A stretch of 64,000 bases of DNA from Croceitalea dokdonensis DOKDO 023 (GTDB lineage Bacteria > Bacteroidota > Bacteroidia > Flavobacteriales > Flavobacteriaceae), in assembly GCF_001306415.1 (NCBI RefSeq), contig NZ_LDJX01000002.1, positions 124,001 through 188,000 of the forward strand. Direction: 5' to 3'. The notes under the pieces were generated by a model, which did not search any database, was not told the origin of the DNA, and saw only the letters and a list, made by a program, of their open reading frames with translations. Positions 35,498-42,042 of this stretch are shown one piece after another; position 1 is the stretch's first letter; each line of letters opens with the position of its first letter. The position numbers and the translations under genes are program-made.

Positions 35498-36217
35498 TTA
35501 AAAACTCATCTTATCCTTAAACAGGTAGGACTGCCTACGGGACACTTCAATTTCCTCCCCGTTTTGCATGGTGAGCTTTAATTTGCCGTTAAACCAAGGC
35601 ACCACGTTACCAATGTAATTGGTATTTACTATTTGTTGTCTGTTCACCCTAAAAAAGGAGGCTTCGGGCAGTTTTTCTTCTATTTGGTTCAACGATTTGT
35701 ACAACAATGGCCTTTCTCCCCTAAAAAAGACCCGCGTGTAATTGCCAACAATCTCAAAATGCGAAATATCTCCAATCTTTACCAACCAACAAGATTCGCC
35801 ATCCTTAATGAAGATTTGGCTCTGCTCTGTAAGTTTCTCCCTGTCAGAAACTTCAGGATTTTGCTCTAGTTGCTTTTTCACCTTGTCGATGGCGCCGGCA
35901 AAACGTTCCTCACTAATAGGTTTTAACAAATAATCCAATGCATTATATTCAAAAGACTTTATGGCATACTCATCAAAGGCGGTTGTAAACACCGTAATGG
36001 GCACCTCATCCAACATTTCCAATAGTTCAAAACCGTCCTTCTCCGGCATATTGATATCTAGAAAAAGAAGTTCTGGCTGTTCTTTTTGTATCAGTTCCAA
36101 GCCATCGTCCACATTTTCCGCCTCCCCTACCAAAGTAATATCCTGATGCTCCTTTAACAGCTCTTTAAGTTCATTACGGGCCAAACGGCTATCTTCCACT
36201 ATTACGGCTTTGATCAT
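35498..36217 (-). CDS. LytTR-family response regulator
   Basis: A 239-residue two-domain regulator. The receiver has the acidic pocket E8-D9, phospho-acceptor D54 in LLFLDINMPEKDG, the Thr in FTTAFDEYAI and K in LLKPI. The C-terminal LytTR domain (about 130-239, IFIKDGESCWLVKIGDISHFEIVGNYTRVFF...FFRVNRQQIVN) binds paired 9-bp direct repeats in DNA. The gene starts 4 nt inside the end of the kinase gene. Two perfect LytTR sites lie upstream of the operon's predicted promoter (39090-39119), so this protein is the likely autoregulator. Confidence 0.92.
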   Translation of the reverse strand: MIKAVIVEDSRLARNELKELLKEHQDITLVGEAENVDDGLELIQKEQPELLFLDINMPEKDGFELLEMLDEVPITVFTTAFDEYAIKSFEYNALDYLLKPISEERFAGAIDKVKKQLEQNPEVSDREKLTEQSQIFIKDGESCWLVKIGDISHFEIVGNYTRVFFRGERPLLYKSLNQIEEKLPEASFFRVNRQQIVNTNYIGNVVPWFNGKLKLTMQNGEEIEVSRRQSYLFKDKMSF

Positions 36218-37269
36218 GGTATTAAAGGTATTTGTATGGAGGCCCCAACGGTATGGTCTGCAATCTCCTCCAGTTTAAAAACGGCTTTGGGCCCGTATAA
36301 TAGGGACAATCTTTTTCTAATATTGGCAAGCCCCAACTGGGTGGTATCTTTTGCCATCAGCAATTTACCGGTATTGCTTACCAAGATGGACATGGTTTGG
36401 GCAGATTTGGTAATTTGGAGCCGTATCACCCCACCTTCCTTTAACTTGGAAATCCCGTGTTTGGCGGCGTTTTCCACCAAAAGCTGAATGACCATGGGAG
36501 GAATTTTAAGGCGTAGACATTCTGGGTCTATGTCTTCGTCATATTTTAGGCGTTCTTCCATTTGGATTTTGGAGAGCCCAACATAGTTCCGGACCATTTC
36601 CAGTTCCTCTTTAACGGTAATGCTATCCACTGAATTTTTGGTCATTGAAAATTCCAACATCTCAGAAAGCTTGGTAATCATTTCCTTGGACTTGGGAACA
36701 TCCTCTAACATGAGGCCCCTAATATTGTTTAAACTGTTGAACATAAAATGTGGATTCACTTGGCCCTTTAGCGTGTTTAATTGTGCCTCCCTAAGGGTGC
36801 TGTTCAATTCCAAACGCTCCAGACTGTTTTTATTGGCCCTGATGCTAAAATTTATGACAAAGTAAAGGACAGTCCAGCATAACATGGTGAACGCAGCATT
36901 GGCAAATGCAAGGGCATAGTTAAAGTTTTCCTTGATAAATGCTTTTTCTTCCGCCGTGCGCCCTATATAGGCATCATAAAAATGCTCTGCAGTAAATATC
37001 AACATAAAATAGAGCCCGCAGGTGGCAATAAAGGCCAATAGCAACCTAATGTACTTTCGTTTCTGGTCAAACTCAAGCCCTACATATTGTTTTAGGTACC
37101 AACGGTAACCAAAGGTCACAGCAATTCCAAATACCGTGGAAACCATAAAAGAAAAAAACAAATAAGTCTTACTAAAACCTAACGGTACAATAAATATGGT
37201 GGCGTCCAAAACCGACCAACCCACCAATTGTAAAACCCAAAACAGGATGTTTTTATTCCTAGGCCTCAT
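36214..37269 (-). CDS. LytS/YehU-type sensor histidine kinase
   Basis: A 351-residue kinase of the His_kinase (PF06580) class. Four hydrophobic segments cover about residues 8-28, 35-55, 75-95 and 118-142. The phosphoacceptor is H174 in GQVNPHFMFNSLNNIRGL, and the ATPase has the N box VENAAKHGISKL and a G box GLANIRKRLSLLYG. All catalytic elements are intact. It overlaps both the pseudokinase gene upstream and the LytTR regulator gene downstream by 4 nt, so the three are translated as a coupled block. The signal sensed is unknown. Confidence 0.92.
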   Translation of the reverse strand: MRPRNKNILFWVLQLVGWSVLDATIFIVPLGFSKTYLFFSFMVSTVFGIAVTFGYRWYLKQYVGLEFDQKRKYIRLLLAFIATCGLYFMLIFTAEHFYDAYIGRTAEEKAFIKENFNYALAFANAAFTMLCWTVLYFVINFSIRANKNSLERLELNSTLREAQLNTLKGQVNPHFMFNSLNNIRGLMLEDVPKSKEMITKLSEMLEFSMTKNSVDSITVKEELEMVRNYVGLSKIQMEERLKYDEDIDPECLRLKIPPMVIQLLVENAAKHGISKLKEGGVIRLQITKSAQTMSILVSNTGKLLMAKDTTQLGLANIRKRLSLLYGPKAVFKLEEIADHTVGASIQIPLIP

Positions 37270-38360
37270 AAAAGTTGTGGTTTTAGGGCTTTGGGTGCCA
37301 CGGGCAGGGTGAGCTGTACGGATAGCCCCCCATCAAATGACTTGGTATAGCCTCCCTCCTCCTTAAATAGTAATTTTAAACGCTGTTTGATTCTGGATTC
37401 CATGACATCATCTGGTCTGGCCAATGAAAACTTGGGACAGGACAGCGTAAGTGTCAGGGTTTCCTTGACCAAACTTCCCGCCAGCCCAAATTCATTGGTT
37501 CCAGCTTGTCTAAAATCTTCATTTTCAGCGACCATTTCGCACAAGTTGAGCAGAAGCATTGGCGGAATTTCCAAACCTAGGGTCTCTTTGGTAAAATCCT
37601 TTTTAAACAGGACATCGGATGCGGTAACCTTGTTTAGGAGCAGTGCATAGCGGTCTACCATTCGCAACTCTTCATTAATAAAGACTTGGTGCACATCATT
37701 TTTAGTCAATGAATACCGTAAGATTTCGGAAAGTTCCGTAAGCATACGTCTGGCAAGTTTTACATCGGTATCCATGGTTGTTCTTATCGCACTTAATACC
37801 TGAATGATGAAATTAGGGTTTAAATGGCCTTTTAACGTATTTAGCTGTGCTTTTTTAATAGAGTCTTTGAGGACGATGCGTTCTGCCCTTTGGTTGTTAA
37901 GCCTAAAAAAGTACTGCACCCCCAAATAAGCAGAGGTCCAGGCAGCCATCAATATCAAACTAAAAATAAAGCGAGAGGTATCCGAGGTAAATCCCATAGT
38001 ATTGGAAACGTCCAATGGGTCCTCAGGGGCAATACGTTCCGTTAACCAGCGCGAGGCAATTCCCAAGTAATAGGGAATAGTGATAAAAATCCAGCTGGCC
38101 GTCATAATACCTATGATTACCTTTAGGACGTTCCACCAGCTAAACCGCGCAATACTTTTTGTAAGTTTAAGGTAAAACCTAAGAAGTGTAGTGGGGATTA
38201 CACCCACCAATACCAAGGAAATATATAGTAAAAGCCTGGCAAAAATTCCACCGGATGCGTTTAAGGAAATAAACACCAATAAGAAAAAAGCACCCCAACC
38301 CAAAAACTGCAGTACAAAGAAAATGAAGTTTCTATTTTTAATGTTCCAAGTCATACACAT
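37266..38360 (-). CDS. LytS-type histidine pseudokinase
   Basis: A 364-residue homologue of the neighbouring kinase with the same membrane-helix layout and the KxxAQLNTLKGHLNP lead-in. The phosphoacceptor His is replaced: the motif reads LNPNFIIQVLSAI with N183 where the partner has His. The ATP-binding N box is also gone (LLLNLCEMVAENEDFRQAG instead of VENAxKHG), although PPMLLLNL before it and a weak G-box remnant (IKQRLKLLF) remain. It should not autophosphorylate. Coupling (4-nt overlap) to an intact kinase suggests a heterodimer partner or sensor subunit. The start may be ATG 38354. Confidence 0.85.
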   Translation of the reverse strand: MCMTWNIKNRNFIFFVLQFLGWGAFFLLVFISLNASGGIFARLLLYISLVLVGVIPTTLLRFYLKLTKSIARFSWWNVLKVIIGIMTASWIFITIPYYLGIASRWLTERIAPEDPLDVSNTMGFTSDTSRFIFSLILMAAWTSAYLGVQYFFRLNNQRAERIVLKDSIKKAQLNTLKGHLNPNFIIQVLSAIRTTMDTDVKLARRMLTELSEILRYSLTKNDVHQVFINEELRMVDRYALLLNKVTASDVLFKKDFTKETLGLEIPPMLLLNLCEMVAENEDFRQAGTNEFGLAGSLVKETLTLTLSCPKFSLARPDDVMESRIKQRLKLLFKEEGGYTKSFDGGLSVQLTLPVAPKALKPQLL

Positions 38361-38464: not shown

Positions 38465-38671
38465 CTAAAGTTTACTTTTGCTCTTTCTTCTTTTTTTAAG
38501 GCACCCATATAATTTTCTATCCTCCTTAACCCCCCAAATGATGGCTACTACCGACGAGGCAACCATGAAAATGGTCCATACCTGTTTACCCGCATTAAAT
38601 TGGGAGGCCAATGCTGATGCCAATAGCAGGGCTGCCGCTCCGTAAAGGGCATTGCGTATGGGTTTTTTCAT
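38465..38671 (-). CDS. small two-helix membrane protein
   Basis: A 68-residue protein with two predicted membrane helices (about 7-25 and 30-47) and a very basic tail (KKRRKSKSKL). No family is recognised. Its start overlaps the stop of the preceding 66-residue gene by 4 nt, which supports translation. It lies between the LytTR-controlled promoter and the kinase genes, 104 nt before the pseudokinase start, so it is probably part of that operon. Confidence 0.6.
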   Translation of the reverse strand: MKKPIRNALYGAAALLLASALASQFNAGKQVWTIFMVASSVVAIIWGVKEDRKLYGCLKKRRKSKSKL

Positions 38672-38868
38672 TTTTGCAATTTTTGGGTGGCAGCTGTTGT
38701 GGTTTCTTCTTTGTGGAGCACTGCCATTCCCATGAACATAAAACCGGCGTGTATGGGTAAAAAATAATGAATGACACTCTGGTCCGCGATGGCTCCAAAT
38801 GCACCTAAAAGGAGGGCGATGAAACCAATGACAAATACGGCTTGCTTAATATTCTTTGAATTTTTCAT
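38668..38868 (-). CDS. small two-helix membrane protein
   Basis: A 66-residue protein with hydrophobic stretches at about 10-27 and 34-50 (FVIGFIALLLGAFGAIA; YFLPIHAGFMFMGMAVL) and a polar tail. I recognise no family. It is coupled by a 4-nt overlap to the following small membrane protein. It is the first substantial gene after the promoter at 39049-39076 and so may be a target or accessory part of the LytTR system. Confidence 0.6.
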   Translation of the reverse strand: MKNSKNIKQAVFVIGFIALLLGAFGAIADQSVIHYFLPIHAGFMFMGMAVLHKEETTTAATQKLQK

Positions 38869-38966: not shown

Positions 38967-39020
38967 CTATACCAAAATGCTTAGGATAAGTGAAACGATT
39001 ATTTTTACTAATGCTACCAT
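38967..39020 (-). CDS. possible 17-residue hydrophobic leader peptide
   Basis: An ATG 29 nt after the TACATTTG box opens a 17-codon frame (MVALVKIIVSLILSILV, then TAG) that is almost wholly hydrophobic. It could be a leader peptide, or the remnant of a lipoprotein signal sequence cut by a stop. Its size means it may be chance. Confidence 0.25.
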   Translation of the reverse strand: MVALVKIIVSLILSILV

Positions 39021-39048: not shown

Positions 39049-39076
39049 CAAATGTAGCCGGCAGGTCACCTTCAAA
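39049..39076 (-). promoter_or_regulatory. promoter of the LytTR/pseudokinase operon
   Basis: Read on the minus strand, TTTG (39076-39073) and a perfect TACATTTG (39056-39049) form a Bacteroidetes promoter with a 16-nt spacer, slightly short. It drives leftward into the small membrane proteins and the kinase-regulator block. Confidence 0.6.
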
Positions 39077-39089
39077 AAATAGAATTATG

Positions 39090-39119
39090 ACGAACGGTAA
39101 ACTGGTCTTACCGAACGGT
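39090..39119 (-). promoter_or_regulatory. paired LytTR-type operator
   Basis: Two direct repeats on the minus strand, ACCGTTCGG (39119-39111) and ACCGTTCGT (39098-39090), each fit the LytTR consensus [TA][AC][CA]GTTN[AG][TG] at all nine positions and are separated by 12 bp, the known spacing for this class. They share a longer core TTTACCGTTCG. The pair is centred about 60 bp before the predicted start of transcription, a typical activator position. Confidence 0.7.
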
Positions 39120-39156
39120 AAAAAGAGGATACTTAGTTTATAAAAGTGGTGGTGCT

Positions 39157-40932: not shown

Positions 40933-42042
40933 TTAGGCCAAACGATCGATCACCTTTGCCAAACGCTGGGTAATTTCTGTGATTTCACCAATACCGTTCA
41001 CTGCATAAAATTTATCCTGTGCACTGTAGTACTCTTTTAAGGGCGCTGTTTTTGCGTTGTACTCATCAAACCGATTGCGGATTTTGGCTTCATCCTGGTC
41101 ATCACTCCTTCCGCTGTCCTTACCACGTTCCAATAAACGAGCTACCAAAATATCATCTTCCGCCTCAAGGGCAATAGTGGCATGTATCTGCATATCCCTG
41201 CTTTCCAAGAAATGGTCCAATGCCTCTGCCTGGGTGGTAGTTCTTGGAAATCCGTCAAAAATAAATCCAGCGGCATCCGTGTTCTTTTCCACTTCTGCCT
41301 TGAGCATATTAATGGTTACCTCATCTGGCACCAAGTCACCGTTATCCATATAAGATTTGGCCAATTTCCCCAATTCCGTCCCGTTTTTAATATTATATCG
41401 GAACACGTCCCCGGTAGAGATGTGCTTAAGATTGTATTTTTCTTTTAAAAATCCAGCCTGCGTTCCTTTGCCCGCTCCGGGTTTTCCAAAAAGTACTAGG
41501 TTGATCATATGGTCTTCATTTAATTGATATACTTCTTTTAAGTTTCTTCCCAGCTCCCTGTAATCCAATCCATACCCAACAATAAATTTATTGGGAATTT
41601 CAAGCCCTACATAGTCAATATTATATTCCCCATTGTATACTTCCGGTTTATAGAAAAGGGAAGCTATTTTAAATTCCTTGACCTTAGAATTGGCAAATAA
41701 ATTCACCAGCTGCTTTAAGGTCCTGCCCGTGTCTATAATGTCTTCCAAAATAACCACGGTCTTGCCCTCCAGATTTTCTGGAACATCCAATAAGGTTTCC
41801 ACAATACCTGTAGAGGTGAGCCCTTGATAGGAGCTAAGTTTTACAAAGGAGACCTCGCATGGCTCTTCATAGGCCTTTAAAAAATCTGCCACAAACATAA
41901 AAGACCCGTTCAACACCCCTACAAAAATGGGTACTTCATTTTTAAGGTCCGCTGCAATCTGGCTTGCCATTTTATGAACCGCACCCAAAATCTGTTCTTG
42001 GCTTAAGAAGGGTTTAAAGTATTTGTCATGCAATTGTATCAT
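40933..42042 (-). CDS. adk: hypoxanthine phosphoribosyltransferase - adenylate kinase fusion
   Basis: A 369-residue fusion. Residues 1-175 are a type I phosphoribosyltransferase (PRPP loop VVILEDIIDTGRTL, 96-109; KFIVGYGLDYRELGRNL near its end), the hypoxanthine/guanine salvage enzyme. Residues 179-369 are adenylate kinase: P-loop GKPGAGKGT (186-194), HISTGDVFR, FIFDGFPRT and a short LID (GKDSGRSDDQDEAKIRNR). The fusion joins purine salvage to adenylate balance and is known in Flavobacteriia. A near-consensus -7 (TATCTTAG) lies upstream. Confidence 0.93.
   Translation of the reverse strand: MIQLHDKYFKPFLSQEQILGAVHKMASQIAADLKNEVPIFVGVLNGSFMFVADFLKAYEEPCEVSFVKLSSYQGLTSTGIVETLLDVPENLEGKTVVILEDIIDTGRTLKQLVNLFANSKVKEFKIASLFYKPEVYNGEYNIDYVGLEIPNKFIVGYGLDYRELGRNLKEVYQLNEDHMINLVLFGKPGAGKGTQAGFLKEKYNLKHISTGDVFRYNIKNGTELGKLAKSYMDNGDLVPDEVTINMLKAEVEKNTDAAGFIFDGFPRTTTQAEALDHFLESRDMQIHATIALEAEDDILVARLLERGKDSGRSDDQDEAKIRNRFDEYNAKTAPLKEYYSAQDKFYAVNGIGEITEITQRLAKVIDRLA

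What the first reader, a model, noticed from the sequence alone, without database searches (positions are those of the whole stretch)
39049..39119. Exact LytTR operator and promoter ahead of a pseudokinase-kinase-LytTR operon
Two 9-bp direct repeats (ACCGTTCGG and ACCGTTCGT, 12-bp spacer) fit the published-type LytTR consensus [TA][AC][CA]GTTN[AG][TG] at every position. They are placed about 60 bp before a good Bacteroidetes promoter. The operon they control ends with the LytTR regulator, predicting direct autoregulation. Such a complete operator-promoter-regulator set can rarely be read from sequence alone.
Basis: partly seen in the sequence, partly recalled or inferred. Interest (0 to 1): 0.75.

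Follow-up and report, generated by a model that had tools for sequence, protein, structure and literature searches.

The report
Self-activating switch with a hidden micropeptide
A short repeated DNA site in front of a bacterial sensor operon is kept, at a fixed distance from the promoter, in nearly all relatives of that operon that were examined, and just behind it lies an overlooked, conserved gene for a membrane-loving peptide of only 17-18 amino acids.

Summary
The two direct repeats are real: the only such pair in the window and the only extended match in the genome at up to 3 mismatches. The same site lies upstream, in the same orientation, of 77 of 80 orthologous kinase-LytTR operons, nearly all from records titled as Flavobacteriaceae, and of 9 of 9 further orthologues not used to build the motif. 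In 83 of 111 sites a TAnnTTT box sits exactly 33 bp after the second repeat, against a mean of 0.27 at other offsets.
Corrections: the conserved half-site is longer than the quoted consensus, which both halves meet in only 7 of 78 sequences. The -33 box is weak. The operator lies 10 bp before it.
New: behind the promoter lies an overlooked ORF for a 17-18 aa hydrophobic peptide, found in 70 of 81 sequences, under coding selection and, in the DNA held, seen only beside this operator. Relatives carry the operator again before an S9 peptidase.
Most likely: a positively autoregulated LytTR two-component operon whose output includes a membrane micropeptide. Binding and the peptide's role are untested. 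Close orthologues occur in 12 of 120 sampled genera.

The parts
39111..39119 (-). distal LytTR half-site ACCGTTCGG
39084..39098 (-). proximal half-site ACCGTTCGT plus conserved CATAAT extension (39089-39084); contains CCGTTCGTC, the AlgR core site
   Evidence: AlgR core from passages of PMC4064291
39073..39079 (-). weak -33 region (TTTT at the standard 19-bp spacing, TTTG 3 bp closer)
39049..39056 (-). -7 box TACATTTG, exactly 33 bp after the proximal 9-mer
38967..39020 (-). overlooked micropeptide ORF, 17 aa, MVALVKIIVSLILSILV
38668..38868 (-). small membrane protein 1, 66 aa, one hydrophobic segment (no Pfam family over cut-off)
38465..38671 (-). small membrane protein 2, 68 aa, one hydrophobic segment, overlaps the previous gene by 4 bases (no Pfam family over cut-off)
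37266..38360 (-). pseudo-histidine kinase (PF06580 over cut-off; phosphoacceptor His replaced by Asn)
36214..37269 (-). histidine kinase, 4 hydrophobic segments + PF06580, His kept
35498..36217 (-). REC-LytTR response regulator, presumed binder of the operator

Best explanation
The element is an activator operator-promoter. The response regulator at 35498-36217, when phosphorylated by the kinase of the same operon, binds the two 21-bp-spaced half-sites as a head-to-tail dimer, 10 bp upstream of a weak -33 region, and recruits RNA polymerase to the TAnnTTTG promoter. This switches on its own operon (micropeptide, two small membrane proteins, pseudokinase, kinase, LytTR regulator): positive autoregulation. 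In relatives the same operator also drives an S9 prolyl-oligopeptidase-family gene next door; no orthologue of it was found in the window's genome. The 17-aa micropeptide is translated, enters the inner membrane as a short helix with one polar stripe (positions 3, 6, 10, 14) and most likely acts there on the sensor kinase as a feedback component. Shown: conservation, orientation, fixed spacing, uniqueness at up to 3 mismatches, coding selection on the peptide. Inferred: binding, activation rather than repression, phosphorylation dependence, membrane insertion and the peptide's target.
For: Site upstream of 77 of 80 orthologous operons and the window, forward strand only (reverse maximum 8.4, backwards maximum 16.0, against a cut of 22). 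9 of 9 further orthologues, at most 83% identical in DNA to any training locus in the matches found; 7 of these 9 have the box at exactly 33. Fixed 33-bp spacing in 83 of 111 sites and TTTG at the -33 position in only 5 of 111, as expected of activator-dependent promoters. Similar geometry to LytTR autoactivation: HdrR repeats 8 nt upstream of -35, other LRS operons mostly 12 bp apart and 10 bp upstream of -35 (passages of PMC6193735). Proximal half contains CCGTTCGTC, the AlgR core site (passages of PMC4064291). No such site at the genome's other 15 LytTR loci; the genus member without a site (G002, 88% complete) has no close match to the operon's pseudokinase or kinase either. Three of five gene junctions overlap by 4 bases; terminator-like sites 4 against 4.8 in shuffles. 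Peptide: pN/pS 0.34 in frame against 0.62 and 2.9 in the other frames, third-position share reached by 0 of 100000 column permutations; in the DNA held, found only beside this operator.
Against: No binding or expression data. Activation rather than repression rests on position and the weak -33 box. 28 of 111 sites lack TAnnTTT at offset 33, some through variants such as TAnnTTA. The operon itself is not universal: a regulator match at E 1e-85 or better is in 12 of 120 sampled genera. The micropeptide is missing from 11 of 81 sequences (one a truncated contig), several of which have a hydrolase or a GldB-like lipoprotein behind the operator instead. Its place varies (30 to 425 nt from the -7 box position; 61 of 69 at 30-62). 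Two of the nine further orthologues have only weak peptide candidates. The amphipathic pattern is only moderately beyond chance (203 of 5000 column permutations reach it). A terminator-like stem at 38466-38452 lies between small gene 2 and the pseudokinase, and sigma-70-type hits are above shuffles in the region (14 against 7.9), so internal promoters are not excluded (that consensus is not the Bacteroidota one).
Confidence: 0.75

Rival explanations
1. The operator is a repressor site: the unphosphorylated regulator, or an excess of it, binds and limits expression (negative autoregulation).
For: Autoregulation of either sign would conserve the site; nothing tested here measures expression.
Against: The site lies wholly upstream of the -33 position at a fixed distance, with a weak -33 box, and its position resembles that of autoactivating LytTR repeats (PMC6193735 passages).
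Confidence: 0.12
2. The micropeptide is an effector (membrane-active or stress peptide, like small hydrophobic type I toxins, a recalled comparison) whose expression is the purpose of the switch, rather than a modulator of the kinase.
For: Short, strongly hydrophobic, net side-chain charge 0 or +1 in 62 of 70, a polar stripe on one face, under the autoregulated promoter.
Against: In the loci seen it lies within the kinase operon and no peptide of this family follows the operator of the S9 gene. No antisense RNA or antitoxin was looked for.
Confidence: 0.3
3. The tiny ORF is a leader ORF that only couples or attenuates translation of the downstream genes; its amino-acid sequence does not matter.
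For: It starts 30-62 nt behind the -7 box position in 61 of 69 cases.
Against: Amino-acid level constraint (second codon positions nearly invariant); distance to the promoter varies up to 425 nt; in the window the leader folds no better than shuffles and no Rfam family matches.
Confidence: 0.15
4. The repeats are a chance fit to a loose consensus.
For: The loose consensus alone gives 20 genome hits against 7 for its control.
Against: Conservation in 77 of 80 loci and 9 of 9 further orthologues with fixed spacing.
Confidence: 0.01

Closest known systems
AlgZ (FimS)/AlgR of Pseudomonas aeruginosa
   Same: Kinase plus REC-LytTR regulator; core site CCGTTCGTC is contained in the window's proximal half-site (passages of PMC4064291). 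That AlgZ is also a PF06580 kinase with several membrane segments is recalled.
   Different: Here two half-sites at a 21-bp period and mostly a fixed 33 bp to the -7 box, in front of the regulator's own operon, with a micropeptide and small membrane proteins; AlgR sites lie at varied places, some several hundred bp upstream.
LytTR Regulatory Systems (HdrRM, BrsRM) of Streptococcus mutans
   Same: Direct repeats mostly 12 bp apart just upstream of the -35 element (8 nt for hdrRM, mostly 10 in other species), positive autoregulation, co-encoded membrane protein (passages of PMC6193735).
   Different: There a LytTR regulator is paired with an inhibitory membrane protein (passages); that no kinase is involved is recalled. 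Here a kinase and a REC-LytTR regulator, and a 17-aa peptide.
Bacteroides LRS-like operons (B. thetaiotaomicron, B. ovatus)
   Same: Bacteroidota LytTR operons with direct repeats 11 bp apart, 11 bp upstream of a TGTA/TGTG-19-TATCTTTG promoter (PMC6193735 table).
   Different: Different repeat sequence (TCCGGTATTCA type), LytTR regulators with membrane segments, upstream gene with NfeD-like and DUF2154 domains; no micropeptide mentioned in the passages seen.
BtsS/BtsR (YehU/YehT) and LytS/LytR
   Same: REC-LytTR regulator; BtsR is the best NCBIfam model for the window's regulator (175 bits). That their kinases are PF06580 kinases is recalled.
   Different: Below the BtsR cut-off (246) and the LytR cut-off (150.5 of 375); different operon content.

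Membership tests
LytTR response regulator with its operator | REC + LytTR domains in the regulator | tested here: met
   PF00072 5.2e-21 and PF04397 1.2e-24
LytTR response regulator with its operator | two direct 9-mers, 12-bp spacer, fitting [TA][AC][CA]GTTN[AG][TG] (consensus as quoted in the finding) | tested here: met
   met in the window, but in both halves of the kinase-nearest site in only 7 of 78 sequences and in at least one half in 38 of 78
LytTR response regulator with its operator | binding of the cognate regulator to the repeats | not testable with these tools
   only conservation beside the gene was shown
Autoactivating LytTR operon | repeats just upstream of the -35/-33 element, about 10 bp away | tested here: met
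   33 bp to the -7 box in 83 of 111 sites = 10 bp to the -33 position at a 19-bp spacing
Autoactivating LytTR operon | transcription of the operon rises with active regulator | not testable with these tools
   no expression data
LytTR Regulatory System (LRS) sensu PMC6193735 | LytTR regulator paired with an inhibitory membrane protein, without a kinase (the last point recalled) | tested here: not met
   a PF06580 histidine kinase with intact His is in the operon
BtsR equivalog | NCBIfam NF008677 score over 246 bits | tested here: not met
   175 bits
Pseudo-histidine kinase | loss of the phosphoacceptor His in the PF06580 H-box | tested here: met
   N, Q or E in 8 of 8 tandem operons read, window included; the pattern did not read L018 and L019
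Micropeptide as a real gene | codon-level purifying selection and recurrence in further genomes | tested here: met
Micropeptide as a kinase modulator | physical or functional interaction with the kinase | not testable with these tools
   co-location only

The most novel reading that the evidence does not exclude
A new family of 17-18 aa intramembrane peptides, found in many genera of Flavobacteriaceae and encoded behind an autoinduced LytTR promoter, acts as the built-in ligand or brake of a LytS/AlgZ-type kinase (with a catalytically dead partner kinase in some lineages), making a closed peptide-kinase-LytTR feedback circuit analogous to, but independent of, Gram-positive peptide-LytTR circuits such as agr.
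Probability: 0.3. Interest if true: 0.82.

Novelty: new variant of a known kind. Interest (0 to 1): 0.6.

Why it matters
It gives a specific, testable operator for a two-component system kept at a comparable locus in many flavobacteria. The listings (titles and starts of abstracts) of ten searches of the open PMC library show no LytTR target site described for Flavobacteriaceae; one paper, read in passages, gives LRS-like repeats in Bacteroides. It reveals a gene so short (17 codons) that ordinary annotation is likely to skip it (not checked), and links it to a kinase and to a serine peptidase whose expression can be measured. If the peptide modulates the kinase it would be, to my recollection, among the shortest regulators of a sensor kinase.

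Tried and rejected
Loose consensus search of the genome: too noisy to prove anything. Two TTACCGTT halves with 2 mismatches: 20 hits against 41 for the control; its only other exact hit (C9:659964) scores 2.7 on the matrix and was dropped. Allomuricauda-form pattern over 120 genomes of the family: 13 hits in 11 genomes against 29 control hits in 23 genomes, so at family level this form carries no signal by count, other relatives having CCRYT variants; of the 11 genomes, five (G000, G023, G030, G080, G111) have sites with the micropeptide behind them, the hits of the other six have none and are taken as chance. Search for residues in the LytTR domain that follow CCGTT against CCACT: no convincing column. 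Leader attenuator or riboswitch: the window leader folds no better than shuffles, no Rfam family. Solved structures (best 60 of 181 shown): the rows shown cover the receiver part except one chain matching residues 174-236 (3d6w), so no transfer of DNA contacts was attempted. A wider regulon in the window's own genome beyond 3 mismatches of the pattern was not settled. The peptide set of 70 was picked by stated filters (17-24 aa, mean hydropathy at least 1.7, M followed by I, V or F, ATG or GTG start, under 500 nt behind a site or on a contig without one), and two secondary candidates of L126 were removed by name.

Full report
Observation. On the minus strand at 39119-39090 the window reads ACCGTTCGG, 12 bases, ACCGTTCGT. 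Shuffles of the window give 0.09 such matches; 8 of 100 shuffles hold at least one. In the whole genome the loose consensus with spacers 11-14 gives 20 matches and its backwards control 7, so the consensus alone proves little.

Conservation. Eighty loci encoding close relatives of the regulator were fetched with up to 5 kb upstream (the best 80 of 565; record titles mostly Flavobacteriaceae, one Saprospiraceae). In many the neighbourhood is syntenic (Obg, DUF4136 protein, kinase, regulator). A search for two ACCGTTCG halves with one mismatch each found the site in 19 of the 80, always on the forward strand and followed by CATA. A 40-column matrix grown from these found sites above 22 bits in 77 of the 80 loci plus the window, 111 sites in all; the misses are L054 and L059, with little upstream DNA, and L120, which scores 19.3. 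The best reverse-strand score was 8.4 and the best on backwards sequence 16.0. Because the matrix was trained on these loci, it was tested on orthologues from other genomes of the family: 12 of 120 genomes, drawn evenly over genera, have the regulator at E 1e-85 or better, the own one included, and the other 11 were taken. Two are identical to training loci (L176, L177). The remaining nine are at most 83% identical in DNA to a training locus in the matches found (L175 had no match at 1e-50); their genera are unnamed and may be represented in training. Nine of nine have a site above 22 (best per locus 27.6 to 41.2), the reverse strand never exceeding -3.6, and seven of nine have TAnnTTT at exactly 33. 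The window's site scores 47.9, the next best place in the window 6.5, and the other 15 LytTR loci of the genome (about 3.2 kb each, so not every operon's full upstream) at most -0.6. With the extended pattern at up to 3 mismatches the own genome has one match, and the eight genus genomes 11 matches in seven genomes against 0 in the control. The one genus member without a match (G002, 88% complete) also lacks a close match to the operon's kinases (best E 8.6e-8). At family level the same pattern gives 13 hits against 29 in the control, so this form is specific only near the window's genus.

Anatomy. The consensus is tTaCCGTTca-N~9-aatTTACCgcTcgTCATAattt. The conserved half-site is wider than the 9-mer and tolerates CCACT as well as CCGTT: the second half of the kinase-nearest site reads AC at positions 4-5 in 39 of 78, GT in 24, GC in 12, AT in 3; both halves fit the quoted consensus in 7 of 78 and at least one half in 38 of 78. 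So the perfect fit in the window is partly luck; the operator is supported for another reason. A TAnnTTT box lies exactly 33 bp after the proximal 9-mer in 83 of 111 sites, against a mean of 0.27 at other offsets. With the Bacteroidota 19-bp spacing (as in the promoters of PMC6193735's table; otherwise recalled) this puts the operator 10 bp upstream of the -33 position, where only 5 of 111 sites have TTTG. The window has TTTT there and TTTG 3 bp too close. This is how an activator-dependent promoter is expected to look, and it resembles the autoactivating HdrR repeats of Streptococcus mutans (8 nt upstream of -35) and other LRS operons (mostly 12 bp apart, 10 bp upstream of -35; passages of PMC6193735). 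The proximal half contains CCGTTCGTC, the core AlgR site (passages of PMC4064291).

An overlooked gene. Between the promoter and the first longer ORF lies ATG at 39020 to the stop at 38967: MVALVKIIVSLILSILV. By stated filters a peptide of the same kind is found in 70 of 81 sequences (44 of 17 aa, 19 of 18 aa, 7 of 20-24 aa); of 69 with a site upstream, 61 start 30-62 nt behind the -7 box position and eight at 95-425 nt. Missing are L059 (truncated), L097, L110, L114, L118, L119, L120, L121, L122, L123 and L125; in several of these the operator is followed by a longer ORF instead, among those searched a GldB-like lipoprotein (L097) and alpha/beta hydrolases (L114, L119). Over 211 moderately diverged pairs (not independent of each other), pS is 0.53 and pN 0.18 in frame (ratio 0.34), against 0.62 and 2.9 in the other frames; 55% of differences fall on third positions, a share reached by 0 of 100000 column permutations. 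A profile of the 65 distinct peptides was run over 370,838 bases outside L047-L126: 21 rows above 12, which are 11 genomes, namely the own one (in the training set), G080, G111 and G004 (identical to training loci L087, L089, L053), and seven others (G001, G003, G005, G006, G007, G023, G030), every one at a locus with this operator. There was none at the other 15 LytTR loci; 925,064 shuffled bases gave a maximum of 9.8. In the family scan the loci of five genomes (L147, L162/L172, L164, L167, L170) have the peptide and the seven loci taken as chance hits do not. In the nine further orthologues each has a tiny hydrophobic ORF about 93-128 nt behind the start of a site; seven score 16.3 to 37.8, L185 12.0 and L183 8.8, the last below the shuffle maximum. 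Lysine is at position 6 in 61 of 70; positions 10 and 14 are polar in 54 and 64 of 70. These fall with position 3 on one face of a helix; the hydrophobic moment is reached by 203 of 5000 column permutations, suggestive only.

The operon. Behind the peptide come two small membrane proteins (66 and 68 aa, one hydrophobic segment each, no Pfam family over cut-off), a pseudokinase and a kinase, both over the PF06580 cut-off, the kinase with four hydrophobic segments, then REC-LytTR. Three of the five junctions overlap by 4 bases; the other two are gaps of about 100 bp. Upstream kinases in tandem operons have lost the phosphoacceptor His in 8 of 8 cases read (window N, L054 Q, L077 Q, L082 Q, L088 E, L091 Q, L092 E, L094 N), while the partner keeps it. 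The pattern did not read L018 and L019, two nearer pseudokinase relatives. Terminator-like sites in the region are not above the shuffled mean (4 against 4.8), sigma-70-type sites are (14 against 7.9).

Other targets. In 16 loci an operator stands before an S9 peptidase gene (L053 and 15 others, 47-80% identical to it, 649-767 residues aligned), and in three more (L119, L121, L122) before a shorter protein sharing its N-terminal region (L053 PF00326 3.1e-46). No peptide of this family follows these. The window's genome gave no orthologue of this peptidase (best match 26% over residues 466-760), so here the autoregulatory site is the only strong one seen.

Mechanism and limits. The best reading is positive autoregulation by the phosphorylated LytTR protein, with the peptidase as a shared output in relatives and the micropeptide as a membrane component of the circuit. 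Binding, sign of regulation, signal, membrane insertion and the peptide's partner are inferred. The listings of ten literature searches in the open PMC collection show no paper on this operator or peptide in Flavobacteriaceae; the listed papers were not read except for passages of PMC6193735, PMC4064291, PMC6222199 and PMC10197871, and subscription papers are mostly not held.

Noticed in passing
window 37266-38360; L054, L077, L082, L088, L091, L092, L094: A pseudo-histidine kinase precedes the true kinase; its phosphoacceptor His is replaced by N, Q or E in 8 of 8 cases read, suggesting a maintained partner subunit.
   Followed up: partly
L053:888-3191 and 15 further loci: An S9 prolyl-oligopeptidase-family gene beside the operon carries its own copy of the operator; no orthologue was found in the window's genome.
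   Followed up: partly
behind the sites at L077:1502, L088:666 (gene partly masked), L092:1027, L094:1666: In Cellulophaga loci extra operators precede short proteins that share an IK[DN]VAP segment near the N-terminus, possibly exported and ankyrin-like (by eye; not searched).
   Followed up: no
L097, L110, L118: In Tenacibaculum loci the operator is followed by a lipoprotein-like ORF of about 440 aa; the one searched, L097, matches the GldB-like lipoprotein family PF25594 at 3.1e-8.
   Followed up: no
window 40933-42042: One ORF reads as a hypoxanthine phosphoribosyltransferase fused to adenylate kinase (by eye; recalled, not searched).
   Followed up: no
window 39108-39121: The distal half-site lies in a near-palindrome TTACCG-TT-CGGTAA in the window and, in part, in some relatives; many relatives lack it, so it was not taken as functional.
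   Followed up: partly
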